Positions 1-20,651 of a DNA stretch of 20,651 nucleotides are shown here, piece by piece. The notes beneath the pieces are model-generated. The model saw only the letters and a program-made list of their open reading frames with translations, was not told where the DNA came from and ran no database searches. The number at the start of each line of letters is the position of its first letter. Within the stretch, counting starts at the first letter, position 1. The translations under genes were made by a program, and so were the position numbers. Source of the stretch: a virus; IMG/VR virus record IMGVR_UViG_3300036857_000427, positions 1-20,651 of that record; one strand, given 5' to 3'.

Positions 1-228
1 GCCCGACGCCCCAGAACGCCCCGTAGGGCCCCTGGCGCCGGCGGCGCCCCGGCTCCCCTTCGGCCCCTGCTCCCCCTGCGGGCCCGGGGGCCCGATGGCG
101 ACGGGCGGCGTCTGCGCGGAGGCGCGCTGCGACCCCGGGCCCGCGTTGGCTGCCATGACGGCCGCGGTACCGGCGCCGACGCCGATGAGGCCGGCATAGA
201 GGACGACGAGCCAGAGCGCGCGGGTCAT
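1..228 (-). CDS. Membrane-anchored collagen-like protein (partial, 3' end beyond window)
   Basis: This reading frame starts at ATG 228-226, which overlaps the TGA of the preceding gene as ATGA, and stays open to the left edge (76 codons visible). Residues 4-28 are hydrophobic (ALWLVVLYAGLIGVGAG...), which suggests a signal anchor or signal peptide. After a Pro/Ala linker, residues from about 45 on are Gly-X-Y triplets (GPPGPQGEQGPKG, then SRGAAGARGPTG), which is the collagen-like repeat. Collagen triplets in phages normally make trimeric fibre stalks without a membrane segment. A hydrophobic N-terminus directly after lysis genes is therefore uncommon. It could be an exported or envelope-displayed fibre, or a fibre whose hydrophobic start has another use. 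Function is not known, and the C-terminal domain that would decide it lies outside the window. Confidence 0.75.
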   Translation of the reverse strand, partial: MTRALWLVVLYAGLIGVGAGTAAVMAANAGPGSQRASAQTPPVAIGPPGPQGEQGPKGSRGAAGARGPTGRSGASG

Positions 229-551
229 CGGGAGAGCCAGTCGGTGGGTGGGTTGGGGCCGGGCCCGCGGTCCATGCTCGAGCCCCCCAGCGTGGCGCGG
301 TCGAGCCGGCCGCGGAGAGCGAGGACGGTCGCGCGGCAGTCGGCCAGCGAGGAGCGCAAGTCGCTGATGTGGGCGTGGAGCTCGTCCTGGACCGTCATGG
401 GGTGCGCGGGAGCATCAACGGGCCCCTCCTCCTCCTCCGCCGGCGGCGACGGCTTCAGGAGCTTGTAGGCGGCGACGCAGGCGCCCACCAGGCCCGCCAT
501 CGCGGTGAGCAGCCCGGCAGCGGAGTCCGCGAACGTAGCGGCGAGCGGCAC
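225..551 (-). CDS. Small single-span membrane protein with coiled-coil tail (possible holin or spanin-like partner)
   Basis: The 108-residue protein starts at GTG 551-549, four bases after the stop of the two-span membrane protein. Residues about 10-32 (ending CVAAYKLLK) form one hydrophobic helix followed by positive charge. A short acidic Pro/Glu linker (EEEE at about 39-42) follows, then a probable amphipathic helix or coiled coil at about 53-86 (DELHAHISDLRSSLADCRA). The tail is Gly/Pro rich. I see no enzyme motif. Its place directly after the holin candidate and the endolysins suggests a lysis role: a second holin or antiholin, or an i-spanin-like protein. That is inferred from context only. 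No strong ribosome binding site precedes the start, so translation is probably coupled to the upstream gene. Confidence 0.7.
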   Translation of the reverse strand: MPLAATFADSAAGLLTAMAGLVGACVAAYKLLKPSPPAEEEEGPVDAPAHPMTVQDELHAHISDLRSSLADCRATVLALRGRLDRATLGGSSMDRGPGPNPPTDWLSR

Positions 552-555
552 CGGC

Positions 556-885
556 TCACGGCGCGGGCTCGTTGAACTTCGTCGGGTCGCGGACGTCGGC
601 TTCGTACTTCTGCCAGCCGTCCAGCCACTTGACGACGGCCGCGGCCAGCGCGCCGACGCCGCCGATGACGCCGACCGTCGATGTGATGTCGAGGTTGGCG
701 AGCGCCGGCGCCAGCGCTGCCGCTATGCCGGCCAGTGCGCCCAGGCCCGCCACGAGCCGCCCCTTGTTGAGGCCGCCCGGGATGGCGGACTGCGGGACCG
801 ACTTGACGACGGCCTCGAGCTCCGTCGCTACGACGCTTATCTGCTGGGCGCCGCCGGCCGCCTTCTGCCCTGGCGTCTCGCTCAC
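556..885 (-). CDS. Probable holin, two membrane helices
   Basis: This 109-residue protein starts at GTG 885-883, which overlaps the TGA of the acidic micro-protein as GTGA. GGAGGAGGAG sits just upstream as a strong ribosome binding site. The N-terminal 40 residues are soluble. Two hydrophobic helices follow at about 43-63 (LVAGLGALAGIAAALAPALA) and 69-88 (STVGVIGGVGALAAAVV), separated by a short turn (NLDIT). The tail is charged (WLDGWQKYEADVRDPTKF). Small size, two helices and position just after two endolysin genes match a class II-type holin, which forms membrane lesions that release or activate endolysin. No sequence family is recognised with certainty, so the call rests on topology and neighbourhood. 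Confidence 0.65.
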   Translation of the reverse strand: MSETPGQKAAGGAQQISVVATELEAVVKSVPQSAIPGGLNKGRLVAGLGALAGIAAALAPALANLDITSTVGVIGGVGALAAAVVKWLDGWQKYEADVRDPTKFNEPAP

Positions 886-1052
886 GGCTCCTCCTCCGCT
901 GGGGGCTCCCCCTCGAGGGGCGCCTCGTCGTCGTCGCCGGCGTCGTCGTCGAACGCGTCGTCGGGCTCGTCGGCGATGTCGGGGTTGCCGGCATCCGGGG
1001 GCGGGAAGGCCTCCTCCGCCGGCTCCTCGCCTTGCTGCTCCTGCTCGCTCAC
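882..1052 (-). CDS. Very acidic 56-residue micro-protein in the lysis region
   Basis: This short frame fills the gap between the M15 endolysin and the holin candidate. It starts at GTG 1052-1050, three bases after the endolysin stop, with GGAG about eight bases upstream. It ends in a TGA that overlaps the holin GTG. The product is almost wholly acidic and disordered: it begins SEQEQQGEEPAEEAF, continues through DDAFDDDAGDDDE and ends PPAEEEP, with no lysine or arginine. I recognise no family. A second protein of the same size and character lies at 2260-2439, also just before a lysis enzyme, which suggests a shared role such as a charged chaperone, an inhibitor or a nucleic-acid mimic. The function is unknown. 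The reading frame itself is well supported by its exact junctions on both sides. Confidence 0.75.
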   Translation of the reverse strand: MSEQEQQGEEPAEEAFPPPDAGNPDIADEPDDAFDDDAGDDDEAPLEGEPPAEEEP

Positions 1053-1055
1053 GGC

Positions 1056-1739
1056 TCAGGCTCCGATCAGCTGCTTGATGTAGTCGGCGCGCTCCTTCCG
1101 GTGCATCTGGCCCCAGCCGCTCTTCGCGGCGGCCTCCCGGATCTGGCGCAGTTGGACGGCAAGCTTGCTCTTCGCGCGCGAGGCGCGCTCGAGATGGCTC
1201 TTGTCGACCTTCTCCCACCCGCCGTGGCGTTTGGCGATGCGCCGCTCTTTGACGAGCGTGTCGCGCGCCGCCTTCTCCGCCCCGGTGAGGTACGTGCGGG
1301 GGTGCGGCTTCGGGCGAGCTCGAGGGCTCTCGCCGCGGTGGCGGTCGCGGTCGGGGTTGTACGTCGTATGCCACGCCTCAGAGGGGGCGTCGGTCCAGGG
1401 CCCGCCGCCGCGGATGCCCCACCCGTACTCCGCCCCGTAGCGGCGGACGGCGGCCTGCATCGCCGGCGTCGGCAGGTCAACGGCGATGCCCCATCCGTGG
1501 TTGCTGGTGCCGGGCCTCGCGGCGAGCGCCCCCCTGCCCGACTGGTAGAGGTTCCAGAAGTACTGCTGGTCGGCGTAGGGCCGGTAGGCGGTGCGCGAGC
1601 TCGTCGGGCAGATCCAGACGCCCTGTTCCTTGCCGATGCGCTGGCGGAGCCGCAGCCAGGAGGCGGCGGCGTCCTTGCGCAACCGGCCGCCGGGGATGTC
1701 GGCGAGGTCGGAGTCGGGGAGCCTGCCGTTCTGGGCCAT
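1056..1739 (-). CDS. M15-family (VanY/D-Ala-D-Ala type) zinc peptidase endolysin
   Basis: This 227-residue protein starts at ATG 1739-1737 with AGAGGAGG about six bases upstream. Residues about 45-125 carry the M15 peptidase signature: TSNHGWGIAVDL gives zinc ligands His81 and Asp88, and SEAWH gives the catalytic Glu121 and third zinc ligand His124. The preceding SSRTAYRPYADQ matches the substrate-side segment of the fold. M15 peptidases cut peptide bonds in the peptidoglycan stem or cross-bridge. The C-terminal third (about 145-227) is Lys/Arg-rich and helical, and could bind the anionic cell wall. It follows the Cys/His peptidase gene and precedes a holin candidate, so a role in host lysis is the natural reading. 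The family assignment is firm; the exact bond cut is not known. Confidence 0.9.
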   Translation of the reverse strand: MAQNGRLPDSDLADIPGGRLRKDAAASWLRLRQRIGKEQGVWICPTSSRTAYRPYADQQYFWNLYQSGRGALAARPGTSNHGWGIAVDLPTPAMQAAVRRYGAEYGWGIRGGGPWTDAPSEAWHTTYNPDRDRHRGESPRARPKPHPRTYLTGAEKAARDTLVKERRIAKRHGGWEKVDKSHLERASRAKSKLAVQLRQIREAAAKSGWGQMHRKERADYIKQLIGA

Positions 1740-1751
1740 GAGAGCCTCCTC

Positions 1752-2255
1752 TCAGATGTAGCGCCGGACCTCGAGGACGTCGGAGCGGTAGTCGTAGGGC
1801 AGAAACAGCGGGCCCGCCTCAGAGCCGTGGCTGATGACGTAGGGCCTCGAGCCCTTGAACGAGACGACCATCGCGACGTGCGAGCCGTTGGGCGGCTTGC
1901 CGTACAGGACGAGGTCGCAGCGGAGGATGTTGTCGTGGTCCTTGACGACCTTGCCGTGCTTGCGCAGCGTGCCGGTAAAGCCGGCGCGCCAGCCCAGGCC
2001 GTTGACGACGTCGCCCATCCCGAACCCCAGATACAGGCCGTTCCAGAGGTACCACGTGCTCGAGCTCGAGCAGTCGCAGTAGGCCGGGAACTGCCCCTTC
2101 CGGGCGTTGCGGCCTGAGCGGATGCCCTCCCAGCGGCGAGCGCCCTGCGTGTAGTGGACGGCGCCGCGGTGGTTGTAGAGCAGCCACGCCGCCTGGCAGG
2201 CGCGGTCGCGGCAACGGATGCGCTGCGCCTTGTCGAGGCCGGAGTAGGAGCCCAC
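1752..2255 (-). CDS. NlpC/P60- or CHAP-like Cys/His cell-wall peptidase (second endolysin)
   Basis: The start is taken at GTG 2255-2253 (VGSYSGLDKAQ...), preceded by GAGGAG at a workable distance and inside the tail of the previous gene. The longer open frame upstream is only a shadow of that gene. The 167-residue product has AYCDCSSSSTWYL at about 58-70, which resembles the DCSG...W nucleophile motif (Cys62). It then has LRCDLVLYG at about 111-119, matching the GDLVFY strand, GSHVAMVV with His126, and VISHGSE with His143. This order of Cys, Asp/His strand and His is that of the NlpC/P60 and CHAP papain-like amidases or endopeptidases, which cut stem peptides. The gene lies directly before the M15 endolysin. 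Two endolysins of different chemistry in tandem imply cooperative wall cutting. The subfamily is uncertain. Confidence 0.78.
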   Translation of the reverse strand: MGSYSGLDKAQRIRCRDRACQAAWLLYNHRGAVHYTQGARRWEGIRSGRNARKGQFPAYCDCSSSSTWYLWNGLYLGFGMGDVVNGLGWRAGFTGTLRKHGKVVKDHDNILRCDLVLYGKPPNGSHVAMVVSFKGSRPYVISHGSEAGPLFLPYDYRSDVLEVRRYI

Positions 2256-2259
2256 GGGC

Positions 2260-2439
2260 CTACTCCTCGCCGGCCGGCTCCTCAGCGCTGCCGGAGTCGC
2301 CCTCGTCGTCGCCGGCCGGCTCGTCGGGCTCCTCGCTCGTCTCGCCCTGCTGGCGGTCCTGCTCGAGCTCGCCCTCATCGGGCTTGTCGGCGGCGCCCTC
2401 GTCGGGCTCCTCCTGCGGGGCCTGCGGCTCTTCGGTCAT
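2260..2439 (-). CDS. Very acidic 59-residue micro-protein before the lysis enzymes
   Basis: The start is ATG 2439-2437, with GAGAGGAG about seven bases upstream; a longer open frame starting further upstream would swallow this binding site. The product begins MTEEPQAPQEEPDEG and ends DSGSAEEPAGEE. It is dominated by Glu, Asp, Pro and Gly, with only one Lys and one Arg, so it is probably unstructured. No family is recognised. It resembles the 56-residue protein at 882-1052 in size, charge and position before a lysis gene, although the two cannot be shown to be homologous from composition alone. The stop codon TAG lies five bases ahead of the next GTG start. The function is unknown. Confidence 0.72.
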   Translation of the reverse strand: MTEEPQAPQEEPDEGAADKPDEGELEQDRQQGETSEEPDEPAGDDEGDSGSAEEPAGEE

Positions 2440-2455
2440 GCTGAACTCCTCTCTC

Positions 2456-2662
2456 CTACGGGGTTGGCTCCGGCGCCGGCATTGCCGTCTCAATCGGGGC
2501 GACGGCTCCGCTCTGCACTGTTCCCTGGACGACCTGCTCGACCACGCTTGCGGAGACGAACGCGCCCTCCGGCAGGGAGAGGCCGGCGACGAGCGCCTCG
2601 ACGTCCGCGGCGGAGTCGGCGACGTAATTGATGGCGATGGAGGCCTGGACGGTCATGCTCAC
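2456..2662 (-). CDS. Small protein of unknown function after the collar fibre
   Basis: The 68-residue frame starts at GTG 2662-2660, overlapping the TGA of the collar fibre gene as GTGA. An ATG two codons later is an alternative start. The sequence (SMTVQASIAINYVADSAAD, then VEALVAGLSLPEGAFVSAS) has a beta-strand/helix/beta-strand look and a Pro-rich end (PIETAMPAPEPTP). It has no signal peptide, membrane helix or catalytic motif that I can see. A small soluble gene directly behind a fibre gene is often a fibre assembly helper, but nothing in the sequence proves that here. The tight coupling supports co-production with the fibre. Confidence 0.65.
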   Translation of the reverse strand: MSMTVQASIAINYVADSAADVEALVAGLSLPEGAFVSASVVEQVVQGTVQSGAVAPIETAMPAPEPTP

Positions 2663-3324
2663 GCTCCTGCGTAGATGTAGGCGGGGATCACGAGGGCGGG
2701 GGGCATGTTGCCGTCTGCCGCCCCGGAGCCCTGCGAGGGGATGCTGTGGCTGTGGCGCTGGTTCGCGCCGTAGGAGGTGCGCGCCCCCTCTGCGCTGATC
2801 GAGAGGCCGAAGCGGTCCGCGTTGACGGCGGCTTGCGCCTGGTTGGTCGCCGTGTACGTCTCGTAGTTGTGGTTGTGGTCGGGGGAGTCGTTGCCTGTCA
2901 GGCCGCCGTGGTTATGGGCGGGCATCGCGGCGAGCGAGACCGTCTCCGCGCCCACCCGGGCCCCCATCGCGCGCGCTGAGAGCCCCACGCCCTGGCCCGC
3001 CCCGATGGCCGCCCGGCCGCGGAGGTCGGGGACGTTGAACGTAGACGTGCCGTCGCCGGCCCCGTAGTTGGTGCCGATGGCGGCGAACAGCCGTGCGAAC
3101 GAGCCCGTCCTCGAGACGGCCGCTCCGTCGCAGGCGAGCCAGCCCGCCGGCGCCACGAGCATCCCCATCCAGCGGATCTCGCCGACGTAGATGAGGCCGG
3201 GGGCTCCGCCCTGGCCGGCGATGGCGTCCGCGAGCGCCTTGATGTCGCGGGGGACGTCGACGTTGTCGTCGGGCGTCGGGTACGGAAGGCCCAGGACGGG
3301 AGTGGAGCCAGACGGGCCGGACAT
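2659..3324 (-). CDS. Tail fibre/tip protein with phage tail collar domain
   Basis: This 221-residue protein starts at ATG 3324-3322, directly after the TAG of the gpI-like gene, with GGAGG at about seven bases. The N-terminus (TPVLGLPYPTPDDNVDVP, then RDIKALADAI) is a segment common in tail fibres of actinobacterial phages. Residues about 45-105 form the tail collar domain: WMGMLVAPAGWLACDG, then FARLFAAIGTNYGAGDG, then FNVPDLRGR. The distal part has histidine clusters (AHNHG about 136-140, DHNHN 149-153, HSH 191-193). In T4 gp12-type fibres, such histidine pairs hold metal ions along the trimer axis. It probably makes a trimeric short fibre or tip at the baseplate. A paralogous collar domain ends the 435-residue fibre at 5521-6828, so the phage has two collar fibres. 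Confidence 0.88.
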   Translation of the reverse strand: MSGPSGSTPVLGLPYPTPDDNVDVPRDIKALADAIAGQGGAPGLIYVGEIRWMGMLVAPAGWLACDGAAVSRTGSFARLFAAIGTNYGAGDGTSTFNVPDLRGRAAIGAGQGVGLSARAMGARVGAETVSLAAMPAHNHGGLTGNDSPDHNHNYETYTATNQAQAAVNADRFGLSISAEGARTSYGANQRHSHSIPSQGSGAADGNMPPALVIPAYIYAGA

Positions 3325-3978
3325 CTAGGGGCCTCCTCGAGAGTTCTCTGTCATGGCGCGGTACGTCGGGAAGATGGGCGGCAGGCTCGCATACGTCCAG
3401 GCGGAGCTCGCGCCCTCATCCGTCATCGCCTGGTAGTCCCAGCCCAGCACGGAGCGGTACGTCAGGACGATGCCGGCGGGCTTCGCGGCCATCAGGGCGG
3501 CGAGCACCTGGGCGGGGTCGGGCGTCTCGCTCTCGACGGTGACGACCTCGAGCGTGTACGGGGGGTCGGCGCCGGAGGGGTCGCGCTCCCGGAAGAAGAC
3601 GGTCTTGCTCCCAGTCAGGAAGAGGCTCGCCGCGGCCTCGAGCGCCGCCGGGGTGCCGCGGCGCTGCGGGGCGAGCGCCGTTATGAGCGCGCGCTGAGTC
3701 GCCTCGTCAGCTGTGGTCGGCAGCGAGAGCCCCGCCAACTGCGCGAGCCAGGGGAGCGCCCAGGCGGGGCAGCGCGCGGGGTCCAAGATCGTCTCGAAGG
3801 ACGCGGCGTCGACGGGGTCGAACGCCTCCTGCAACTGGATGGCCTTCGACGCCAGCGCCTCGCAGAGATGGCCCAGCGCGTAGCCCTGGCTCGAGTCGTC
3901 GGGGGCGAGCGGCGCGAGGCGCTCAGCGAGGCGAGCTCCCAGCGGCGAGTAGTCGGGGGGCTGGCCCAGTTGGCTCAC
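3325..3978 (-). CDS. Baseplate/tail protein I (P2 gpI-like, XkdU/YmfQ position)
   Basis: This 217-residue protein starts at GTG 3978-3976, overlapping the stop of the baseplate J gene as GTGA. The segment at about 71-90 (CPAWALPWLAQLAGLSL) and the following RALITALAPQRRGTPAALEAA are the helical core typical of P2 gpI-like tail proteins: wall-like Trp/Leu helices, then an R-GTP-A helix. In P2 and PBSX-like tails, this protein sits at the outer end of the baseplate wedge next to protein J and links to the fibre. The order here (gp25-like, J, I, collar fibre) is exactly that arrangement. The C-terminal part (about 125-217) is predicted to be beta-rich and may be the fibre attachment part. Confidence 0.85.
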   Translation of the reverse strand: MSQLGQPPDYSPLGARLAERLAPLAPDDSSQGYALGHLCEALASKAIQLQEAFDPVDAASFETILDPARCPAWALPWLAQLAGLSLPTTADEATQRALITALAPQRRGTPAALEAAASLFLTGSKTVFFRERDPSGADPPYTLEVVTVESETPDPAQVLAALMAAKPAGIVLTYRSVLGWDYQAMTDEGASSAWTYASLPPIFPTYRAMTENSRGGP

Positions 3979-5198
3979 GGCGCCGCCTGCGCGGTGATGA
4001 GGATGTTCGCGTCGTCGGGCATCGGGAGCGGCGCCGCCCCGGAGAGCGCGATGTCGGCCGCCTGCCAGGAGGAGCCGCCGTTGGCGGTGAGCTCGACGGA
4101 GTCGACCCAGTGGACGCCGTTGGCGCGGTTGAGGTAGTCGACGGCCTCATACAGGCGAACCTTCGTGTCGCGCGCCCAGGACGTCGTCTCCGCCGCCCCC
4201 GGCAGCGTCCCGAACTGCCCGGGGTCCAGCCAGGAGCGCATCATCGCCTCCGCCGCCGCCTCGACGTCCGCCAGCGCGAACCCCGGGAACGCCGTCACGG
4301 TAGCCCTCACGCCGATCGTCGCGTACGTCGGGCCGATGACGTAGTTGAGGAAGTTGACCTCCCGCTGGGCGTCGAGGCTCTCGTAGACCCGCTGCATCAG
4401 GCCGACGTCAGGGGCGGCCCCGCCAGGCCCCGTTATGGCGACGGTAGTGCAGCGCGGGACGTTGCTGCCGCCGGCGGAGTTGTACTCCGGGGCGTCGGTA
4501 TCGCCGACGGGGCTCTCGCTCGCCGGGGGCATGTAGAGGTCGATGGCGAGCGCGCGGCCAACGCCCGGCACTTGGAGCGCGAGCGTGGCGTGGTCCTGCG
4601 GAAGGATGGGGCGAGGAGCGAGCAGCGTAAGCGCGCTCGTCAGGCGGTCGAGGTAGTCGTCGATGTCCTCCTCGTCGGTGCCGCCCTGCGCCTCGCTGAC
4701 CTGGATGCTGTCGACGCCGTCGAGGGCGGTGGCGAGCTCGCTGTCGCCGAAGCTCCCGTTGGCTGCCGCCCCGGGGAGCTCCGCCGTGACGCCGACGCGG
4801 CTCTCGCCTCCTCCCTCTATGGCGACTACGTCGTCGTCGGTGAGGAAGACCTGGGCGTCGCCGGAGGGGTTCGGGACGATGACCTGGGAGCGGGCGTCGA
4901 GCATGACCGCCGGGGTATCCGCCGCCCACGTGATGGTGGCGGTAGCGACGGCGCTCGTAGCGGCGAGGCGTGGAATGCCGTAGATGGTCTGGCCGATCGT
5001 CGCGTAGACCGCCGGCGGCACCTGCGAGGCCTGGTCGAGGACCTCGCTGAGCATCTGGGCGTCGGCCTCGAGCATGACCGTCTCGACGTTCGCTGGGCGC
5101 GCGACCCAGTTGGGGATGGCGCCCTCGAGGTAGGAGAACGCGACGTTCGCCAGGGCGTCGGTATCGCTGACGAGGTCGAGGTCGATGTACTCAGCCAC
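3975..5198 (-). CDS. Baseplate J-like protein (wedge, XkdT/gpJ/gp6 family)
   Basis: The 407-residue protein starts at GTG 5198-5196; the stop of the gp25-like gene lies just before it, and GGAGGAG is upstream. The central region has hallmarks of baseplate J proteins: GVTAELPGAAANGSFG, SIQVSEAQGGTDEEDIDDYLDR at about 155-190 (the conserved GGxDxExxxxYxxR element), and a distal QVPGVGRALAID segment. J proteins of this family form the wedge ring that holds the hub before sheath contraction. The length is in the usual range of 350-480 residues. It is flanked by gp25-like and gpI-like genes, as in P2 and PBSX. The C-terminal part (about 270-400) looks like the domain that contacts the next wedge. 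Confidence 0.93.
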   Translation of the reverse strand: MAEYIDLDLVSDTDALANVAFSYLEGAIPNWVARPANVETVMLEADAQMLSEVLDQASQVPPAVYATIGQTIYGIPRLAATSAVATATITWAADTPAVMLDARSQVIVPNPSGDAQVFLTDDDVVAIEGGGESRVGVTAELPGAAANGSFGDSELATALDGVDSIQVSEAQGGTDEEDIDDYLDRLTSALTLLAPRPILPQDHATLALQVPGVGRALAIDLYMPPASESPVGDTDAPEYNSAGGSNVPRCTTVAITGPGGAAPDVGLMQRVYESLDAQREVNFLNYVIGPTYATIGVRATVTAFPGFALADVEAAAEAMMRSWLDPGQFGTLPGAAETTSWARDTKVRLYEAVDYLNRANGVHWVDSVELTANGGSSWQAADIALSGAAPLPMPDDANILITAQAAP

Positions 5199-5200
5199 GG

Positions 5201-5521
5201 CTAGAACTCCTCCTCCTCCGCGATGGTGGCGGCGATGCGGACCCGCTGGGCGCCGCGGCCGTCGTCGCTGAGCGTTATCTCGAGCTCCGCCCTGGGCTCA
5301 TACAGGCCGACTTGCCGCTCGATCTCCGCGGTGTTGATGGGCGTGAGCTCGAACGCTGGGTCGGTGATGCCGAAGTCGGGCTGCTCCGCCCGCCAGCCCC
5401 GACGGAACGAGAGGAGGACGGCCACAGCTGCGGCAACCTCGTCGTCTGTGTCCTGCTGGATGCTGGCGTAGCTCGAGCCGTCTACGCGGACCGGCCAGGC
5501 GAGGTGCGGGAGGTCGTCCAT
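5201..5521 (-). CDS. gp25-like baseplate wedge protein (XkdS position)
   Basis: The start is ATG 5521-5519, which shares one base with the TGA of the fibre gene (TGATG). The 106-residue protein has the gp25-like pattern: an N-terminal segment (LPHLAWPVRVDG), a helix (DDEVAAAVAVLLSFRRGW) with the R-xx-P-D-F-G-I element (RAEQPDFGITDPAF), and a C-terminal beta segment (YEPRAELEITLSDD). gp25-like proteins resemble the sheath subunit end and start sheath polymerisation at the baseplate. It is close in length to the family, and precedes the J gene as expected. The larger frame extending upstream in this phase runs antiparallel through the fibre gene and is not real. Confidence 0.9.
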   Translation of the reverse strand: MDDLPHLAWPVRVDGSSYASIQQDTDDEVAAAVAVLLSFRRGWRAEQPDFGITDPAFELTPINTAEIERQVGLYEPRAELEITLSDDGRGAQRVRIAATIAEEEEF

Positions 5522-6828
5522 CAGGCCGCCACCGTGATCCAGCGCACCGCCCGGTAGGGCGGGCGGTTCTCGTGCGCGCCCCCGCCCCCGGAGGTGGCAG
5601 TCGTAAAACCGTGGAGGTGGTCGATGCTCCGGTCGACGCCGTTGGTGCCGAACGACGCCACCCAGGCCCAGCGCACCATCGAGTAGTTCGAGATGCCCGC
5701 CACTCCTCCGCCCTGGTCGAGGTAAATCGTATTGCCGTATTGGACGTGAGCGTGGTCGAGGCTTCGGTCGGCGGCCCCAGTCGTGCCGGTATGCGTATGC
5801 GATGGCATCTCCGTCGCGCTCAGCGTGTGGCTCGCCTCGCCGCCCGTAGAGCCCACAGCGGCGGCCCCCGCCCCCATCAGGAACTTGTCGCGCAAGTCGG
5901 GGAGGCTGGCCCCGAACAGCGCGTATAGCTGCGGGTACTGCGCCTGCGTGATCCCCTGGCCGTTGAACTCGAGGTAGCCGCTGGGGATGGTCGAGACGAG
6001 CCAGGGGATCGGCGCGCCGACCAGAGCGCCGGCGGGGCCCTGCGGACCGGCGGGGCCCGTCGCCCCCGTATCGCCCTTCGGGCCCTGCGGCCCCGTAGCG
6101 CCCGTTGGCCCCGCGGGACCGACGGCGCCCTGCGGACCGGTGGCGCCGGTCGCGCCGGTCGCGCCGGTGTCGCCCTTCGGCCCCTGCGGGCCAGCGGGCC
6201 CCGTAGGGCCGGGCGGCCCCTGGGGTCCCGGCTCGCCGGGCACCAACACCGACACGTTCATCTGCCGGTTGTTGGCGGGCAGCGCGCCGGGGCCGGCCTG
6301 CTTGAACGTGACCGGGATGCTGACGTAGCCGCCGTGGTCGGTGGCGGGAGCGCTGACGGTGTAGCTCCCCCAGATGTCGGGGTCGTCCTGCTGCTTGAGG
6401 GCGAGCGTCTGCCCGGCCTGGAACGCGGCGAGGTTGCTCTGCGCGCCGGAGGCGGTCTGCTTCGCCAGGTTGACGACGGTGGCGGTAGCCCACGCGCCGG
6501 TGTTGATGCCGACGCGGCCGTTGGCGGCGTCGGTGGTCGAGGTCGTCCAGTTCCACTCGCCGCTGATGACGGTGCCGCCGCCGCCCCCCTCGCCGCCGGC
6601 CGCGGCGGGGTGCACGACGAACGGAGTGCCGTCCTGGGAGACAGCGACGCAGACGCGGTCGCCGGCGACGGCAGCCTCGCCGCCGACGAGCGGCCCTAGC
6701 AACTGCTGGGAGCCGTCGACGACCGCCCAGCGCTCCTCGCGGCGCAGCGTCAGCTTGCCCTCGAGGACGTTCGTCTCCCCCGGGCCCGGGGGGGGCGGCG
6801 CCGTGACCTGGTCGAGCGCCGGCGTCAT
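5521..6828 (-). CDS. Chimeric spike/fibre: OB-like N-terminus, collagen stalk, tail collar tip
   Basis: The start is ATG 6828-6826, overlapping the TGA of the hub as ATGA, with TTGGAGGGGG just upstream. The longer open frame to 7026 only shadows the hub. The 435-residue product has four parts. Residues about 20-78 ([16 protein letters not shown]...[18 protein letters not shown]) resemble the small OB-type fold found in PBSX XkdR-like or spike proteins. Residues 86-197 are a beta-rich fibre module ([19 protein letters not shown]). Residues 198-267 are unbroken Gly-X-Y collagen-like triplets, with [13 protein letters not shown] twice. Residues about 270-435 are a collar domain with SHTHTG, DHAH and DHLHG histidine pairs. 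It occupies the hub-spike position between hub and gp25. This implies that a collagen fibre is attached at or near the spike. Confidence 0.82.
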
Positions 6829-8975: not shown

Positions 8976-8976
8976 G

Positions 8977-12416: not shown

Positions 12417-12431
12417 CTCCTACTCCTCCTC

Positions 12432-13859
12432 TCAGACCGCCCGCTCGAGCGGCACCTTGGTGATCGGGATGTCGATCCACTCCGCGACCTTGCTCGTCTT
12501 CAGCCGGATGACGGCGATGACGTTGCCGGCCGCGGCGTCGTCGACGGTATTGGCCTCCGCGACCATGACGCGGTAGGCGTCCTGTGGCGTAGCCCCGTAG
12601 AGGGCGTCCATGTCGAAGTAGCGCTGGCAGATCGCGATGAGGTCCTTCGCGAGCTTGGAGTAGAGGTGGCCGCGGCCGTCGATGGGCTCGAAGACGTAGG
12701 GCTGGGCCGCCACGTCCGCCTCGTGCGCGATCGCCATCACGACCCGGCTCTCCCCCAGGAACATCCAGTTCGTCTCCGGGCCCGCCGCCGCCGTCCGGTA
12801 GCCGTACGTCTCAATCGAGCCGTAGACGAGCTTCCCCAGGTTGATGCCCTGGCCGTTCATCGCCTCATGGTCGGCGTCTGACCACTCGTAGAGGAGCGCG
12901 AGCGTGCCGACATGGACGGAGCGGTCGCCGGCCGCTGAGACGGCGGGGTTGCCGGCGGCGTCGACGCGGGCGATGAGGCCCGCCTGGACGGCGCTGTAGG
13001 GGACGATGGTTGTCGCCGGCGCCACGGCCCCCGGGTAGCTCAGCCAGGGAGCGAACAGCCCCGCGTAGCGGCTTGCCTGCGTCGGCTGGATGGCCTCGAC
13101 GGCGGCCTCGAGCTCCGTCCTCGAGCCGGTGTTGGGGGCGTCGAGGAGCGCGACGCGGTGGTGCGTCTCCGCGTGGGCGACGAGCGCCTGGTGGACGGCG
13201 GGCGTCGAGAGCCCGGGGGCGAGCGCCTGGCCGGGCCCCAACTGGTAGCCGAACGCGTCGAGGGCAGCCCCGACGGAGTCGGCGTCGACGGTGTCGTCGG
13301 TCACGCCGCCGGCGAGCGTCGCGGTAGCCGGCGGCGCCGGCAGCGGGTCGGTCGCCGTCGTAGGCGTCAGCCGGATGTACTGGCTGTAGCGGGAGGCCCA
13401 GGCCGCGGCGTCCGCTTGCGTCGCCTCCGCCGGCGAGCGCTCGACCTCCGTGCCGTCGAGCTCGACGACGAGGACCTGCGAGCCCGCCGGCGAGCCAGAG
13501 GGCGGCGCCGCGGTGCTTACCTCGAGGTCGTTGCCCCAGGCGCCGGGCGAGCTCGCATCGACGGTCAGGTCCGTCCCCAGCGTCGCGGTAGCGGCCTCCG
13601 CTGTCGGGCCCGCTATGCGGTTGACGTACAGGGCGGAGCTCGCCTGGCCGGCCTCCGTAAAGAACGCCATGACGGAGTCGCGGAGGACGGAGGGGCCAGA
13701 GCCGAAGAGGTCCTGGTAGTTGCGGAGCGACAGCACCTTCGTCGCGCCGATGGGGCCGCGGTCGGAGAGCCCGACCATGTAGGCCTGTCCGGTATCGAGG
13801 ACGGCGCCGCCCCTGGCGGTGTCCTCCTCGATGTGCACTGTGACGCCAGGTCGCGGCAT
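12432..13859 (-). CDS. Contractile tail sheath protein (XkdK-like)
   Basis: The 475-residue protein starts at ATG 13859-13857, three bases after the previous stop, with AGAGGTGA as binding site. Sheath features in order: PGVTVHIEED at the N-terminus; AYMVGLSDRGPIGATKVLSLRNYQ (seen in part: GLSDRGPIGATKVLSL) at about 27-48; then ALYVNRIAGP at about 76-85. A variable insertion follows (about 90-330), and the C-terminal polymerisation domain includes DALYGATPQDAYRVMVAEAN and the final strand SKVAEWIDIPITKVPLE. The N- and C-terminal strands exchange between neighbouring subunits in contractile sheaths. Length fits the 400-600 residue family. This is the strongest single proof of myovirus morphology in the window. 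Confidence 0.96.
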   Translation of the reverse strand: MPRPGVTVHIEEDTARGGAVLDTGQAYMVGLSDRGPIGATKVLSLRNYQDLFGSGPSVLRDSVMAFFTEAGQASSALYVNRIAGPTAEAATATLGTDLTVDASSPGAWGNDLEVSTAAPPSGSPAGSQVLVVELDGTEVERSPAEATQADAAAWASRYSQYIRLTPTTATDPLPAPPATATLAGGVTDDTVDADSVGAALDAFGYQLGPGQALAPGLSTPAVHQALVAHAETHHRVALLDAPNTGSRTELEAAVEAIQPTQASRYAGLFAPWLSYPGAVAPATTIVPYSAVQAGLIARVDAAGNPAVSAAGDRSVHVGTLALLYEWSDADHEAMNGQGINLGKLVYGSIETYGYRTAAAGPETNWMFLGESRVVMAIAHEADVAAQPYVFEPIDGRGHLYSKLAKDLIAICQRYFDMDALYGATPQDAYRVMVAEANTVDDAAAGNVIAVIRLKTSKVAEWIDIPITKVPLERAV

Positions 13860-13862
13860 CGC

Positions 13863-14950: not shown

Positions 14951-15579
14951 AGAGTCCCCCGGGTATCGACGTGGCGAGGCGCGGGAGCGATCGGACGCCC
15001 GTCGGCGTCTATGACGCCCCGCCACGTCTCCTGCATCCCCACGAGCCACGCCTGGGCCGCAGAGGGCTCGTAGGGGTCGTCGACGTCGTAGGCCTGCGGG
15101 TTGTTCCAGTTGGCGGGAACGAACAGCGAGGGGCCGGCGCCGCAGGGCTGGTAGGGCGTGCAGAGGTCGTAGGCCCCCGCGGAGCCGCTCTCGCCGCCGG
15201 CGCCGGGCCCCAGCCCGCCATCGACGACGCACTGGTAGAGGCCCTGCAACGCCGCCGTGAGCTCCTCGTTTAGCTGGACGTAGGCGCTGCGGTTGTCGGC
15301 GATCTGCTCCGGGAAGTACGACTTCTCGATGATGCAGGCGGCGGCGAGCGAGACGGCCTGCCGGTAGCCGGCGAGGCAGGCGTCGGGGCTCTCCCAGCCG
15401 ACGCGGAGAGCCACCATCGCGTGGGCGACCTCGATCGTCGCCTCGACCTGTAGGACGGTGGGGCGCGTCGCCTCCGTGAAGAGGCCCTGCTCCCGCCCCT
15501 CGTCGTCCTGGGTGCGAGCGCGGAGCCAGACGGCGACATCCTGCGGCGTGCAGATGGGCTCCTCTGGCTCCGTGCTCAT
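14947..15579 (-). CDS. Head-tail adaptor protein (gp6/XkdH-like)
   Basis: The 210-residue protein starts at ATG 15579-15577 in a 17-base gap after the capsid gene, with GTAGGAGGGGG upstream. The first 110 residues are helical (PICTPQDVAVWLRARTQDD, PTVLQVEATIEVAHAMVA, YRQAVSLAAACIIEKSYFP), a pattern like the four-helix gp6-type adaptors that dock below the portal. A Gly-rich segment with a Cys pair (DLCTPYQPCG) and a Pro-rich tail follow. It is longer than the classical adaptors (about 100-110 residues), so the C-terminal 90 residues are an extension. Its place right after the capsid gene supports the call. Confidence 0.7.
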   Translation of the reverse strand: MSTEPEEPICTPQDVAVWLRARTQDDEGREQGLFTEATRPTVLQVEATIEVAHAMVALRVGWESPDACLAGYRQAVSLAAACIIEKSYFPEQIADNRSAYVQLNEELTAALQGLYQCVVDGGLGPGAGGESGSAGAYDLCTPYQPCGAGPSLFVPANWNNPQAYDVDDPYEPSAAQAWLVGMQETWRGVIDADGRPIAPAPRHVDTRGTL

Positions 15580-15596
15580 GGCTCGAGCTCCCCCTC

Positions 15597-16523
15597 CTAC
15601 GCGGTGGCGGTGGTCGCGAACGGGTACGTCGACTGCGGCTGGCCGTCGGCGCCGGTGCCGACATGGTCCGCCACGGCGAACGCGTAGCGGGCGACGGCGC
15701 GGAGAGCGACGGCGTCCTGCTGGGCGAGGTTGAAGATGACCTTCCCGGCGTCATCGCTGATGACGCTCTCGCTGAGCACCTTGTACGTGATGTCCTGGCG
15801 GACGCCCAGGACGGCGCAGGTCCAGTCGCCCATGATCGTCTGGAGGTTCGCCGGCCAGCCCAGCGTGCCGGACGGGTAGACGAGCGGGTAGCCGAACAGG
15901 TCGTTGGGGGCGGCCCCCAGGGAGCTCGCGCCACCCAGCTGCGTCAGGGCGCGCCGGACGGCGCCGCGGACGGCGGCGCGGGCGACGATGCCGTTGACGT
16001 TGACGTCGTTGCCCTCGAGAAGCGAGAGGGCCTCATCGATGCCGGCGACGACGTCGGCGTTGACGATGGCCTGCGTCGGCGTAGCGGCGGCGGCCCCCGG
16101 CACGATGGCCTGCGCGAACGTCGCCGGCCGGTTGACGCCGAAGACGGTTGCGCTGTCGAGGACCATCGCGAACGCGTCCGCCAGGAGGGGGCGGAGGCGG
16201 GCGAAGATGTCGACGTTGACGTCGGCGATGACCGCCTCCGGGACGGGGACGATGACGGCGAGCTCCTCCGCCGTGAGGTACTTGCCCGTCCAGGAGACCT
16301 TGGTGGTCTGCTTCAGCCCCGTATCTCCGTTGACCCAGTAGGCGTAGGGGAGGGCGTCGAGGACGGCGGTCTTGACCTGGCCGCTCGACATGGGGATCTG
16401 GCGAAACAGGCTCGCGACGATGCTCGTCCTCGCGATGTCCTGCTGTAGCTCGACGACGACGGGCTCCGGCATGAGGCCCTGAACGTCGGTGCGCGCAATC
16501 AACTGGTCGTAGATGGGCGGCAC
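15597..16523 (-). CDS. Major capsid protein, HK97 fold
   Basis: The start is GTG 16523-16521, with AAGGAG six bases upstream, the best-placed binding site in the window, as expected for the most abundant product. The 308-residue protein shows the HK97 pattern: MPEPVVVELQQDIARTSIV (about 18-36), then FRQIPMSSGQVKTAVLD (about 40-56), YWVNGDTGLKQTTKVSWTG (E-loop region), YLTAEELAVIVPVPEAVIAD (spine helix start), and a C-terminal YKVLSESVISDD plus VALRAVARYAFAVAD (P-domain strands). There is no long N-terminal delta domain, which agrees with the separate scaffold gene upstream. Capsomer T number cannot be read from the sequence. Confidence 0.94.
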   Translation of the reverse strand: MPPIYDQLIARTDVQGLMPEPVVVELQQDIARTSIVASLFRQIPMSSGQVKTAVLDALPYAYWVNGDTGLKQTTKVSWTGKYLTAEELAVIVPVPEAVIADVNVDIFARLRPLLADAFAMVLDSATVFGVNRPATFAQAIVPGAAAATPTQAIVNADVVAGIDEALSLLEGNDVNVNGIVARAAVRGAVRRALTQLGGASSLGAAPNDLFGYPLVYPSGTLGWPANLQTIMGDWTCAVLGVRQDITYKVLSESVISDDAGKVIFNLAQQDAVALRAVARYAFAVADHVGTGADGQPQSTYPFATTATA

Positions 16524-16619
16524 TGCGTGCTCCTTCGGCTAGAGGTATGACGCGCCCCTCGAGGGCGCTCTCCGGCCACTGGCGGGCCTGCTACTGCCGG
16601 CGCGCGCGGCGCCTGGGAA
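16524..16619. other. Intergenic leader of the capsid gene (96 bp, non-coding)
   Basis: This is one of only two gaps near 100 bp in the window. Going along the minus strand it holds a GC-rich run next to the scaffold stop, a perfect hairpin at 16568-16552, and the AAGGAG binding site of the capsid gene. I see no open frame and no convincing promoter boxes. It may tune capsid mRNA stability or translation. Confidence 0.6.
16552..16568 (-). repeat. Perfect hairpin upstream of the capsid ribosome binding site
   Basis: GCGCCC-CTCGA-GGGCGC forms a 6-bp stem with a 5-base loop. No T-run follows on the minus strand, so it is not a classical intrinsic terminator. It lies about 28 bases ahead of the capsid start, so it may protect the 5' end of a processed capsid transcript or insulate it from the scaffold gene. 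The loop plus adjoining base contains CTCGAG, the window's over-represented palindrome. Confidence 0.5.
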
Positions 16620-17159: not shown

Positions 17160-17165
17160 CGGCGG

Positions 17166-18698
17166 TTACGCTACCGCCGGGGCAAACGGACCGCCAGTCG
17201 GCGGCGGGGGCGCGCCGGGCGGCGCCGGCGCCGGCGGGACCGCGGCCGGGGCCGCGGCAGGCGCCCCGCCGGCAGCCAGCCCGTGCTCGCGGGCCTGGTC
17301 GATGGCGTCGAAGAACCCGCTGATCTGCTCCGGCGAGTAGCCGTAGTCCTCCCACAGCTGCTGGGGCGGGACGCCGATGGCGAGACGCTTGACGAGGGAG
17401 TCCGCGAGCGCGCTCTCGCTCCGCCGGCCCGCCGCCGTCCAGTCGAGCGAGATGCGCGGGGAGCCGACGGTGATGCCCTCGATCTCCGCGGCGTAGCCCA
17501 TCGCGACGCTGATGCCGGGGCCCATGCTCCGCTGCTTCCCGACGACCTTGTCGGTCATCCCCGTCTCCGCCGCGTCGAGGCTCTCCCCCGACGGCCAGTT
17601 GCCGGAGCCGCTCATCAGGATGTGCGGCGGGATGCGGCTGCGGGAGGCGAGGCTCCGGACATGCCAGTCGAGCGCGCCGGTGTAGTTGCTGAGGTCCGTC
17701 TGCGCGAACTCCCCGAACTTGCCGTCGGGTTTCTCGTTTACCCAGACGCGCTCGACGGCGGCGCGGAACGGCTGGATGGGCAGGCCGGTGTCGGGGTCGC
17801 GCGGCACCTCGAGGCCCGTCGCCCAGCGCTGCCGGAACGCCTGGAACTCGGCGCTGACGAGCATGTTCGTCAGCAACTGGTCGATGGCGTCCTGCGTCGA
17901 GATGAAGTCGGCGATGTCGCTGCGCCCCAGCCCGATCGCGACGTCCGGGGCGTTATGGGGCGGGACGAGGAGAGCGAGCGGCGGGCGGGCCGGGAGCATC
18001 TGCGGGTCGGAGAGCAGGACGCCCACGGGGACGCGCCCCAGGCGGTTTGCCTCGACGTCGAGCGCCTCGTCCTCGCGCGCCATAAGCCAGGAGTCGCTGG
18101 GGCGCTTGCTCCGCCGGTAGATGGCCTGCGGCGTCCAGAGCGTGACGTACAGGGCCTCCGCGTTCTCGTCCCACCAAGCCTTCAGGGCGGCGGAGAGCCG
18201 GCGGCGGTCGTCGGGGGCGCGCTCAACGATGAACTGCCGGGGGTGCTCGACGGTGATGCGCGCGCGCGCCTCGCCGGCCTCGAGGTAGGGCTCAACGAGG
18301 AGGTAGGCCTCCCCCTGCTGGCCGGCGGCCGTGAAGCCCAGGCCGGAGTCGAGCTCGAGGCCCTCGCGGCGCCAGAGGTCGAGCAGTTGGCGGTCGGCGA
18401 GGTCGCTGCCGCCGCCCTTGAGCGCTTGTACCTCGAGGCGCTGCGCCGCGGCCTGGACGATGAGCGCCATCCAGTTGTCCGACATGCCGGCGAGCATCGC
18501 CCCGAACGCCCGCCGGTACTGCGTGGAGATGAACGCCAGGGCGTGGCGGCCCTCCACGTAGTCGGTGTAGAGGTCGCAGAGCGGCGCTCGCTCCTGAAGC
18601 TGCGTCAGGAGCCGGGCCATCAGGAGCTCAGGCGGCGTGGCGTCAGGCGGGACGCTGAGCGCCACCCACGTCTCGTCTGTGGGGGAGAGCAGGGTCAT
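17166..18698 (-). CDS. Portal protein (SPP1 gp6-like family)
   Basis: The 510-residue protein starts at ATG 18698-18696, overlapping the terminase stop as ATGA. The N-terminal part has PELLMARLLTQLQERAPLCD and YTDYVEGRHALAF (about 40-56), the N-x-x-Y-x-G-x-H element of SPP1-like portals. LGRVPVGVLLSDP lies near residue 220. The middle has ALDWHVRSLASRSRIPPHIL (about 343-362, in outline), the segment next to the clip and crown helices, and GISVAMGYAAEIEGI. Residues about 470-510 are a Pro/Ala/Gly-rich disordered tail (APAAVPPAPAPPGAPPPPTG). The portal forms the DNA entry dodecamer. No MuF-type minor head gene follows it, unlike in SPP1. Confidence 0.92.
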   Translation of the reverse strand: MTLLSPTDETWVALSVPPDATPPELLMARLLTQLQERAPLCDLYTDYVEGRHALAFISTQYRRAFGAMLAGMSDNWMALIVQAAAQRLEVQALKGGGSDLADRQLLDLWRREGLELDSGLGFTAAGQQGEAYLLVEPYLEAGEARARITVEHPRQFIVERAPDDRRRLSAALKAWWDENAEALYVTLWTPQAIYRRSKRPSDSWLMAREDEALDVEANRLGRVPVGVLLSDPQMLPARPPLALLVPPHNAPDVAIGLGRSDIADFISTQDAIDQLLTNMLVSAEFQAFRQRWATGLEVPRDPDTGLPIQPFRAAVERVWVNEKPDGKFGEFAQTDLSNYTGALDWHVRSLASRSRIPPHILMSGSGNWPSGESLDAAETGMTDKVVGKQRSMGPGISVAMGYAAEIEGITVGSPRISLDWTAAGRRSESALADSLVKRLAIGVPPQQLWEDYGYSPEQISGFFDAIDQAREHGLAAGGAPAAAPAAVPPAPAPPGAPPPPTGGPFAPAVA

Positions 18699-20122
18699 GA
18701 GAACGCGTAGAACCTCCCGGGCCGCTGGCCCGACGCCAGGGCGTCGCAGCGCGCCTCATAGGCGAGCACCGCGGCGACCGCGAGGTCGATTTTGTTCGGG
18801 CTCATGGGCGTGTCCTTGACAAGGAAGTAGCCTCCTCGCGCCTCGTGCATCCTGGCGTTCATGACCGCCCGCGTCAAGCGCGGGTCGCCGTTGTGGCCGA
18901 CCTCGCCGGCGAGCAGATCGGTACGGAAACGCTCGACGGCGGCCAGCATCGGGGAGCGGGCGGTATGGAACGGCGTGACGGCCGGCTGGCCGAACTCGAG
19001 CCCCCAGCGCTCGATGTCTGACTGCCAGAGCGGGGGGTCGAAGTAGCCGCGGACGACGCGGAACGTGTTCATCGCCTGCGCGACGGCGGAGTCGACCTCG
19101 AGCGCCGGCACCTCCCACGTCTGGTCGCGGTGGTGGCCCTCCGGCGCCTCCCAGAGCGCCAACGGCACGCAGAGGGCGTCCTCGAGCCGGCAGGCGCACA
19201 GCGCCGTCGAGTCGCCGGTCCTCGAGCCGTCGAAGCCCAGGGCGATGCGCTCCCCCGGCAGGATGGTGCCGACGCGGGCCCCCTGCGCCCACTGCTCCGC
19301 CCGCAGCCACCAATCCTCGCTCGCCTGCCAGAGCCCGCACGCAAACCGCGCCCACTGCGCCGGCAGCATCGACGGGCTCTCATAGCGGCGGCGCAGCGCC
19401 TCCTCCGTCTGCCAGGACGCCGGGTTGGCAAGCTTGACGACGCGCATGTCGCCGCGGTCGTCCTCGCGGTCAAGCGCCCACTCGTGGAGGACGAACCCGC
19501 CGTCAGCTGACCGCGCCACCGTATGGCGCCCCTCCCGGCGCAGCCCCTCGAGGGAGCGCGCCGCCGCCCGGATCTCCCCCAACGCCGACGCCTCGCTATC
19601 GCCGGCGGTGCTGATCGTCAGCATCTGCCCTCGCCGCGGGCCCAGGCCGTCGCGGAAAACCCCGTAGAGGTCCAGGGATTTGTGGCGGTGGAGCTCGTCG
19701 ACGAACGCGAGTGTCGGGATGACGCCATCGGCCGTGTCGACGTCGGCGGCGAGGACGCGGATGCGGCCCCGCCCCTCCCTCGCCCGAATCATCCGGTAGC
19801 CGCGCTGCACCCTCATGTGGCGCAGGAGCGAGCTCGAGCGCTCCACGAAGCCGGCGGCCTGCTCGTAGAGGATCGTCGCCTGATCGCGGGAGGCCGCCGC
19901 CACCAGGCACTCCGCGTCCTCGACGGTGAGCAGATGCCAGAGCGCCAGCGCCGCCATCAGCGTCGACTTGCCGTTCTTCTTCGGCAGGAGCGCCAACGTC
20001 TCCTGCGCGCCGGCGAAGTAGTCGGCCAGGAGCTCCGCCTGGAACGGCTCGAGGCGCATCGGCCGGCCGCTCTCGAGCTCGAGGCGCGAGCAGAAGGCGG
20101 CGAACTCCTCGAGCTCGCTCAC
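18695..20122 (-). CDS. terL: Large terminase subunit (TerL)
   Basis: The 475-residue protein starts at GTG 20122-20120, overlapping the stop of the 30-residue membrane frame as GTGA. ATPase motifs: LLPKKNGKST (Walker A, about 45-54), LAFVDELH (Walker B, Asp142-Glu143) and TISTAG (coupling motif, about 169-174). Nuclease motifs: ALGFDGSRTGDST with Asp298, GYFDPPLW with Asp362, and SPNKIDLAVAAVLAYE with Asp446. This order is that of the HK97/Terminase_1 large subunits that cut and pump DNA into the capsid. All key residues are present. It heads the structural operon together with the two small genes before it. Confidence 0.97.
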   Translation of the reverse strand: MSELEEFAAFCSRLELESGRPMRLEPFQAELLADYFAGAQETLALLPKKNGKSTLMAALALWHLLTVEDAECLVAAASRDQATILYEQAAGFVERSSSLLRHMRVQRGYRMIRAREGRGRIRVLAADVDTADGVIPTLAFVDELHRHKSLDLYGVFRDGLGPRRGQMLTISTAGDSEASALGEIRAAARSLEGLRREGRHTVARSADGGFVLHEWALDREDDRGDMRVVKLANPASWQTEEALRRRYESPSMLPAQWARFACGLWQASEDWWLRAEQWAQGARVGTILPGERIALGFDGSRTGDSTALCACRLEDALCVPLALWEAPEGHHRDQTWEVPALEVDSAVAQAMNTFRVVRGYFDPPLWQSDIERWGLEFGQPAVTPFHTARSPMLAAVERFRTDLLAGEVGHNGDPRLTRAVMNARMHEARGGYFLVKDTPMSPNKIDLAVAAVLAYEARCDALASGQRPGRFYAFS

Positions 20123-20211
20123 TTGACGACGAGCTCGTAGACGACGAACACCAACGCGAGCGCCAGGCCCACCACGATGAGCGCCGACCCAATCTCAGCC
20201 CAGCGGCGCAC
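20119..20211 (-). CDS. 30-residue membrane micro-protein between TerS-like gene and TerL
   Basis: This frame fills the gap between two clear genes. It starts at GTG 20211-20209, three bases after the stop of the TerS-like gene, and its TGA overlaps the terminase GTG as GTGA. The product is MRRWAEIGSALIVVGLALAL followed by VFVVYELVVK: a basic start, one 20-residue hydrophobic helix and a short charged end (positive-inside, so probably N-in). There is no strong binding site, so translation would depend on the gene before it. No family is recognised. A membrane peptide here is unexpected, and it might serve translational coupling only, or be a real micro-protein of the host envelope. The exact junctions on both sides and the clean helix favour a real gene. 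Confidence 0.6.
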   Translation of the reverse strand: MRRWAEIGSALIVVGLALALVFVVYELVVK

Positions 20212-20214
20212 CGC

Positions 20215-20523
20215 TCAGGCCCGCCGCCGGCGCGCGGCGAGCTCGTCATCGGGGTCGCCGCTCGAGCTCCCCGCCGGCGGCCCCGCCGCAGCCATCCGCG
20301 CATACTGCACCACCGCCTGCGTCTTGCCGGCGCGCGCCTGCTCCGCCAGAAGCCGCATCGCCTCCGCCGCCGGGTCCTCCCCCTCGAGCGCCTCGCGGCG
20401 CAACCCCAATTCGAGCGCGCGGCGCCCCATCTCCGCGAGGCTCACGCCCTCCTCGAGCGCTCGAGCTCGCAGAGCGTCCGCCAGAGAGGCCGGGACGCCC
20501 AAACGGAGCCGCTGCAACGCCAC
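20215..20523 (-). CDS. Possible small terminase subunit / ribbon-helix-helix-like DNA-binding protein
   Basis: The 102-residue reading from GTG 20523-20521 is preferred because the open frame further upstream is low-complexity and crosses repeats; an earlier start up to 20616 cannot be excluded. Residues 1-45 (VALQRLRLGVPASLADALRA, then EEGVSLAEMGRRALELGL) have the strand plus two helices pattern of ribbon-helix-helix or CopG-like DNA-binding proteins. The second half (AAEAMRLLAEQARAGKTQAV, then VQYARMAAAG) resembles the helical part of small terminases, and the tail is Arg-rich. It sits one gene before TerL. A TerS role (recognition of the packaging site) is therefore likely from context. 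An alternative is an autoregulator of the late operon. Neither has a decisive motif. Confidence 0.6.
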   Translation of the reverse strand: MALQRLRLGVPASLADALRARALEEGVSLAEMGRRALELGLRREALEGEDPAAEAMRLLAEQARAGKTQAVVQYARMAAAGPPAGSSSGDPDDELAARRRRA

Positions 20524-20564
20524 GGCCGCAGCATAGCGCCGCCAGACCGCCCACCGCACGCCAG

Positions 20565-20634
20565 AAACGCCCCAAAACGCCCCCAGACAGCCCGGCACGC
20601 CGCCGCGCACGCCCAAAACCGCCGCAAAACGCCG
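20565..20634. repeat. Iterated A3-4CGCC repeats upstream of the TerS-like gene
   Basis: Four related copies on the plus strand: AAACGCC at 20565-20571, AAAACGCCC at 20574-20582, AAAACCGCC at 20615-20623 and AAAACGCCG at 20626-20634. The start-to-start spacing is about 9, 41 and 11 bases, near whole turns of the helix, which fits protein binding on one face. Confidence 0.55.
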
Positions 20635-20638
20635 TTTT
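20626..20638. promoter_or_regulatory. Perfect inverted repeat AAAACG-C-CGTTTT, candidate operator or packaging site element
   Basis: Thirteen bases form two perfect 6-base arms around one central C. It overlaps the rightmost A4CGCC repeat and is followed by CGCGCGCG. Size and symmetry suit a dimeric ribbon-helix-helix protein, such as the one encoded about 100 bases downstream on the minus strand. No functional proof is possible from sequence alone. Confidence 0.45.
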
Positions 20639-20651
20639 CTTCGCGCGCGAG

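What the first reader, a model, noticed from the sequence alone, without database searches (positions are those of the whole stretch)
1..20651. CCGAG/CTCGG is almost absent
A hand scan of the whole window on both strands found one copy (CTCGG at 17847-17851, an Ala-Glu pair written GCC GAG in the portal) and no CCGAG. At about 69% G+C a simple composition model expects about 90. ACGAG, GCGAG and TCGAG are all common, so it is the C before CGAG that is excluded. Ala-Glu is written GCG GAG or GCT GAG, and Leu-Gly is written CTG GGx and not CTC GGx. This holds across about 29 genes, so it acts at DNA level. Candidate causes: avoidance of a host restriction or other defence target containing 5'-CCGAG-3', or loss of the site by mutation.
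Basis: partly seen in the sequence, partly recalled or inferred. Interest (0 to 1): 0.8.

Follow-up and report, generated by a model that had tools for sequence, protein, structure and literature searches.

The report
Phage purged of host restriction sites
A soil bacterial virus has rewritten its genome with synonymous codons so that the five-letter word CCGAG, expected more than 160 times, occurs once, most likely because an unknown host defence enzyme attacks DNA at that word.

Summary
CCGAG/CTCGG occurs once in the window (17847-17851), against 87.5 (Markov), 148 (dinucleotide shuffles) and 98.5 +/- 7.2 (synonymous-codon shuffle). The window is half of a 40,453-bp genome with terminal repeats (G001, contractile-tailed phage); the whole genome also holds one copy, against 167. 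A sister genome (G004) has one, elsewhere, against 157.

About 75 more distant relatives (terminase about 54-64% identical) are not purged, and nearly all have CCGAG at expectation. The loss is therefore specific to one clade and acts on DNA: relatives write Ala-Glu as GCC GAG in 61% of cases, G001 in 1%. At 52 homologous sites none is kept, and the changes spread over all five bases, mostly transversions. That rules out composition, codon bias and cytosine deamination.

The clade also lacks GAGCTG; the window and one sister lack CTGGAG. Cousins have erased other sets of sites. This is restriction-site avoidance against a host enzyme recognising CCGAG, a motif reported once as an m6A Type III motif in an unrelated bacterium.

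Published surveys find avoidance of asymmetric sites absent (Type IIG) or very rare (Type III). Loss from both strands also argues against a strict head-to-head Type III enzyme. Host and enzyme are unidentified.

The parts
1..20651 (.). CCGAG-purged phage DNA: late gene block (27 genes, all on the - strand), half of the complete genome G001 (19803-40453 of 40453)
   Evidence: 1 copy vs 87.5 Markov and 98.5 codon-shuffle; identical to G001, which has a 118-bp terminal repeat
17847..17851 (-). The only CCGAG site: GCC GAG (Ala-Glu, VSAEF) in the portal gene; also the only one in the whole 40.4-kb genome
   Evidence: sister G004 writes the same Ala-Glu as GCG GAG and G002 has Gly-Glu there
15840..15845 (+). 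The only CTGGAG site, a second purged asymmetric word
   Evidence: 1 vs 12.6 Markov, 24.2 codon shuffle
18695..20122 (-). Terminase large subunit, used as family marker (86% identical in purged sisters, about 54-64% in non-purged cousins)
17166..18698 (-). Portal protein gene, holds the residual site
15597..16523 (-). Major capsid protein
   Evidence: PHROG 10
12432..13859 (-). Tail sheath protein (contractile tail)
   Evidence: PHROG 23

Best explanation
Restriction-site avoidance. The host of this phage clade carries (or until recently carried) a restriction system that recognises 5'-CCGAG-3' and damages DNA in which the word is unmodified. Phages with fewer sites survived, and the clade replaced about 160-200 sites, almost always by synonymous codon changes, until one was left. 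The same process removed GAGCTG in the whole clade, CTGGAG in the window's lineage and in G002, and GGCGCC in G004. Shown: the loss, its exact word, its DNA level, its restriction to one clade, and the spread of changes over all positions. Inferred: that a host enzyme is the agent. Because both orientations were purged, I infer an enzyme that acts on single sites or on any pair of sites (a Type IIS/IIG-like or other asymmetric-motif system, or a relaxed Type III), not a Type III enzyme strictly dependent on head-to-head sites.
For: Counts and three nulls. Whole genome 1/167 and sister G004 1/157 at an unrelated place. About 75 cousins, nearly all at 0.8-1.3 of expectation. Ala before GAG is GCC in 1% of cases in G001, but 73% before GAA/GAC/GAT; in cousins 71% and 69%. 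Leu-Gly: CTC GGx 0 of 71 in G001, 1136 of 1372 in cousins. Homologous same-residue sites: 0 of 52 kept in G001, 0 of 59 in G004, while control words are kept at 27-93% and 38-73%. Sister G002: native part 1 of about 52 expected; a 9.4-kb diverged tail segment holds 7 of 37, as expected of a segment acquired later and only partly purged. Complete cousins: 82 palindromic and 65 asymmetric words eliminated in 18 genomes against 0.3 and 2.7 in codon-shuffled genomes. CCGAG is a reported m6A motif assigned to Type III in Thioflexothrix psekupsii D3 (PMC5578853).
Against: The host is not identified and no CCGAG enzyme was found in a candidate host. Rusinov 2018 (PMC6286503) found no avoidance for Type I and IIG sites and very rare avoidance for Type III, so complete elimination of an asymmetric word is unexpected under this explanation unless the enzyme is of another sort. 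The phage carries its own methyltransferase (G001 3788-4879), which might have spared it the need for avoidance.
Confidence: 0.87

Rival explanations
1. A classical Type III restriction enzyme (head-to-head sites needed) in the host is the agent. This is a sub-case of the best explanation that differs in the enzyme class.
For: The word is a 5-bp asymmetric A-containing motif, and the one published CCGAG methylation motif was assigned to Type III. A single residual site per complete genome would be harmless to such an enzyme (review PMC3874151).
Against: Purging one orientation alone would give immunity, as in T7, whose 36 EcoP15 sites share one orientation. Here both strands were purged: 0 of 64 and 1 of 101 in G001; 0 of 68 and 1 of 88 in G004. 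Type III avoidance is very rare in phages.
Confidence: 0.25
2. Mutational loss: a host methylase marks a cytosine of CCGAG, and deamination to T removes the sites without selection.
For: TCGAG, one deamination product, is over-represented (257 vs 186 Markov; 1.55 times the codon-shuffle value in G001).
Against: At homologous sites C>T makes up 1 of 72 changes in G001 and 3 of 73 in G004; the bulk is C>G at position 2 and G>C at position 3, both synonymous escapes. The Ala-Glu replacements are GCG, GCT and GCA.
Confidence: 0.03
3. A phage-encoded nuclease (for example the clade-specific HNH protein, G001 15055-15381) cuts CCGAG in host DNA, and the phage protects itself by having no sites.
For: The HNH gene and a PD-(D/E)XK gene are found in both complete purged genomes and in none of 16 non-purged complete or near-complete cousins.
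Against: Nearly all early genes of the clade are clade-specific, so the association is weak. The PD-(D/E)XK gene sits beside RecT, as recombination exonucleases do. Small HNH proteins are common in phages, also in phages without the purge. Cousins purge many other words without this gene.
Confidence: 0.04
4. Composition or codon-usage artefact.
For: None after testing.
Against: The codon-shuffle minimum is 79 against 1 observed; cousins of similar composition have the word at expectation.
Confidence: 0.005

Closest known systems
Restriction-site avoidance in phage genomes (Rusinov et al. 2018, PMC6286503)
   Same: Near-complete elimination (observed/expected under 0.1) of a restriction-type word at DNA level in a dsDNA phage in which no integrase was seen; lineage-specific word sets
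   Different: The published pattern concerns palindromic orthodox Type II sites; Type IIG sites were not avoided and Type III sites only very rarely. Here the strongest case is an asymmetric 5-mer, purged on both strands (1 of 167)
Strand-biased site retention of phage T7 against the Type III enzyme EcoP15 (PMC3874151)
   Same: A phage escaping an enzyme with an asymmetric site through the make-up of its genome
   Different: T7 keeps 36 sites in one orientation; this clade has lost both orientations
CCGAG m6A methylation motif of Thioflexothrix psekupsii D3 (PMC5578853)
   Same: Same recognition word
   Different: An unrelated gammaproteobacterium; no enzyme was assigned there and no link to this phage was tested

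Membership tests
Phage restriction-site avoidance | Word strongly under-represented beyond base, Markov and codon nulls | tested here: met
Phage restriction-site avoidance | Acts at DNA level in any reading frame, on both strands | tested here: met
Phage restriction-site avoidance | Lineage-specific and not shared by more distant relatives | tested here: met
   only one clade (G001/G002/G004, plus the fragment G003 identical to G001) of about 80 related contigs
Phage restriction-site avoidance | Host encodes a restriction system for the word | not testable with these tools
   host unknown; weak hint of Solirubrobacterales (terminase relative in a Solirubrobacteraceae MAG; distant portal relatives in 4 of 232 genomes of that order)
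Phage restriction-site avoidance | Non-temperate lifestyle (typical of complete elimination) | tested here: inconclusive
   no integrase recognised among the G001 genes, but not every gene was scanned
Target of a head-to-head Type III enzyme | Selection only against coexistence of both orientations | tested here: not met
   both orientations purged
Target of a BREX system in the tentative host order | BREX genes in the host | tested here: inconclusive
   PglZ found in 4 of 232 Solirubrobacterales genomes, 2 over the curated cut-off; host not established

The most novel reading that the evidence does not exclude
The uncultured host carries a restriction system of undescribed make-up that recognises the asymmetric word CCGAG and acts on single unmodified sites strongly enough to drive complete loss from both strands, and this phage family as a whole meets host defence mainly by site erasure, including asymmetric words, contrary to the published rule.
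Probability: 0.3. Interest if true: 0.65.

Novelty: new variant of a known kind. Interest (0 to 1): 0.52.

Why it matters
The published rule is that phages erase palindromic Type II sites but hardly ever asymmetric sites. Here is a clean, quantified exception with sister genomes as controls. It also shows how word loss in phage contigs can name the defence specificities of hosts nobody has grown: one family of soil phage genomes gives a list of words (CCGAG, GAGCTG, CTGGAG, GAGGTG, GGGCTC and many palindromes) that can be sought among methylated motifs in long-read data from the same soils.

Tried and rejected
Host by DNA matches to 232 Solirubrobacterales genomes: only weak, repeat-like or diverged hits. 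Two short high-identity hits checked for CRISPR repeats: none. Type III methylase family PF12564 in the order: no hit, but the control rang nowhere either, so uninformative. Phage phiC31 and two relatives show 4-5-fold CCGAG depletion, but other 5-mers are as depleted and sites remain mostly as CCGAGA, so I did not count it as the same thing. Literature for GAGCTG as a methylation motif: none held. One search was a mis-specified alignment and is not used.

Full report
What was checked. The window holds one CCGAG on both strands, CTCGG at 17847-17851. A maximal-order Markov model expects 87.5 (z -13), dinucleotide shuffles 148 +/- 11, and synonymous-codon shuffles that keep every protein and the codon usage 98.5 +/- 7.2 with a minimum of 79 in 500. 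It is the most depleted 5-mer. G+C is 72.3%, not 69%.

What it belongs to. The window is a whole IMG/VR record (G000) and is identical to positions 19803-40453 of G001, a 40,453-bp contig with a 118-bp direct terminal repeat, taken as a complete genome. The genome encodes a terminase, portal, capsid protein, tail sheath (contractile tail), RecT, a PD-(D/E)XK nuclease, RusA, an HNH protein and an orphan-type methyltransferase; no integrase was recognised. In all of G001 CCGAG occurs once against 166.6 expected; in coding sequence 1 against 192.7 by codon shuffle. G004 (44,739 bp, 123-bp terminal repeat, terminase 86% identical) has one against 157, at 35359 in an unrelated small gene. G002 (22,464-bp fragment) has 8 against 90. 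The habitat (soil) is inferred from the family and the kind of samples, not read from a record.

Clade-specific. Eighty terminase-related viral contigs were retrieved, and 15 further complete or near-complete cousins (36-46 kb) were read in full. Outside G001/G002/G004 (and the 5-kb fragment G003, identical to G001), nearly all have CCGAG at 0.8-1.3 of expectation; the lowest are L057 (15 of 33) and L072 (76 of 112). The purge therefore arose within one clade.

DNA-level and selective. Relatives write Ala-Glu as GCC GAG in 61% of cases; G001 does so in 1% and uses GCG, GCT and GCA instead. Leu-Gly is CTC GGx in 1136 of 1372 cases in cousins and 0 of 71 in G001. GCC is avoided only before GAG: 1% there against 73% before GAA/GAC/GAT. 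At 52 G001 codon positions where some cousin has CCGAG and the residues are the same, none is kept; the control words GCGAG, CTCGC, CCGAC, GTCGG, TCGAG and CTCGA are kept in 27-93%. The changes hit all five motif positions, mostly as C>G at position 2 and G>C at position 3; C>T is 1 of 72. This excludes deamination and points to selection for any synonymous way out.

Mosaic control. In G002, 7 of the 8 sites lie in a 9.4-kb tail segment only about 44-64% identical to its best relatives at protein level; this segment has 7 of 37 expected, while the rest of the fragment has 1 of about 52 (binomial P 0.011 for the clustering). A later-acquired, partly purged segment is the simple reading; a donor with partial avoidance is not excluded.

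Other words. GAGCTG is absent from G001, G002 and G004 (0 against 62.5, 34.6 and 39.6 by codon shuffle); CTGGAG is nearly absent in G001 and G002 but normal in G004; GGCGCC is absent in G004. Cousins have erased other sets, mostly 6-bp palindromes such as CTCGAG, GAGCTC, CAGCTG, GCCGGC, CCGCGG and GTCGAC, and also asymmetric words such as CACCTC, GAGCCC and CAGCTC. In 18 genomes, 82 palindromic and 65 asymmetric words are at or below 10% of expectation, against 0.3 and 2.7 in codon-shuffled genomes. Some asymmetric words may be parts of longer or degenerate sites (for example GGACC within GGWCC).

Mechanism. The best reading is avoidance of a host restriction target. CCGAG has been reported as an m6A motif assigned to Type III in Thioflexothrix psekupsii D3 (PMC5578853). 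A classical Type III enzyme needs head-to-head sites, and T7 escapes EcoP15 with 36 same-way sites (PMC3874151); under such an enzyme one orientation could remain. Here both are gone: 0 of 64 and 1 of 101 in G001, 0 of 68 and 1 of 88 in G004. I therefore favour an enzyme that acts on single sites or on any pair. That both complete genomes keep exactly one site would fit an enzyme needing two sites in any orientation, but two genomes are too few to build on.

Against what is known. Rusinov et al. (PMC6286503) found avoidance mainly for orthodox Type II sites, none for Type I and IIG, and very rarely for Type III. This clade is an exception, and asymmetric-word losses in its cousins suggest the exception may hold family-wide. 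The kind of phenomenon is known; the word, the completeness for an asymmetric site and the loss on both strands are the new part.

Limits. The host is not identified. The nearest bacterial contig is a Solirubrobacteraceae MAG (terminase 46%), and distant portal relatives occur in 4 of 232 genomes of that order. No cognate enzyme was found. Gene calls outside the window come from a simple codon-score script.

Noticed in passing
G008 (39,809 bp; L019, L020) and L155-L157 (G020), L164-L166 (G023): Cousin phages that have erased about ten different 6-bp palindromes each (for example GAGCTC, CTCGAG, CAGCTG, GCCGGC, CCGCGG at 0-1 copies against 16-63 expected).
   Followed up: partly
L161-L163 (G022, 41,855 bp, about 58% G+C): Asymmetric words AGCGA (1/46), CACCTC (0/49) and CAGGTC (0/30) and the 4-mer TTAA (0/57) are eliminated, on both strands for the asymmetric words.
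   Followed up: no
L167-L168 (G018): CCCGAG is absent on one strand (0/19) but present on the other (CTCGGG 30/40): a possible one-orientation signature of a Type III enzyme, or chance.
   Followed up: no
L011:3788-4879 (-): Clade-specific phage methyltransferase (PHROG 12517/498), absent from the 16 complete or near-complete cousins compared; its target is unknown.
   Followed up: partly
L011:15371-16582 (-): 403-aa clade-specific protein with a C-terminal Asp/Arg beta-hydroxylase domain (PF05118) beside the HNH and RecT genes.
   Followed up: no
window 5521-6828; L011:19389-20030 (-): Collagen-like Gly-X-Y repeats in a tail-region protein and in a second protein of the same phage.
   Followed up: no
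L199 (phiC31), L200 (Shawty), L194 (Heather): Streptomyces phages with CCGAG at 0.19-0.24 of expectation, though other 5-mers are as depleted and the remaining sites are mostly followed by A.
   Followed up: partly
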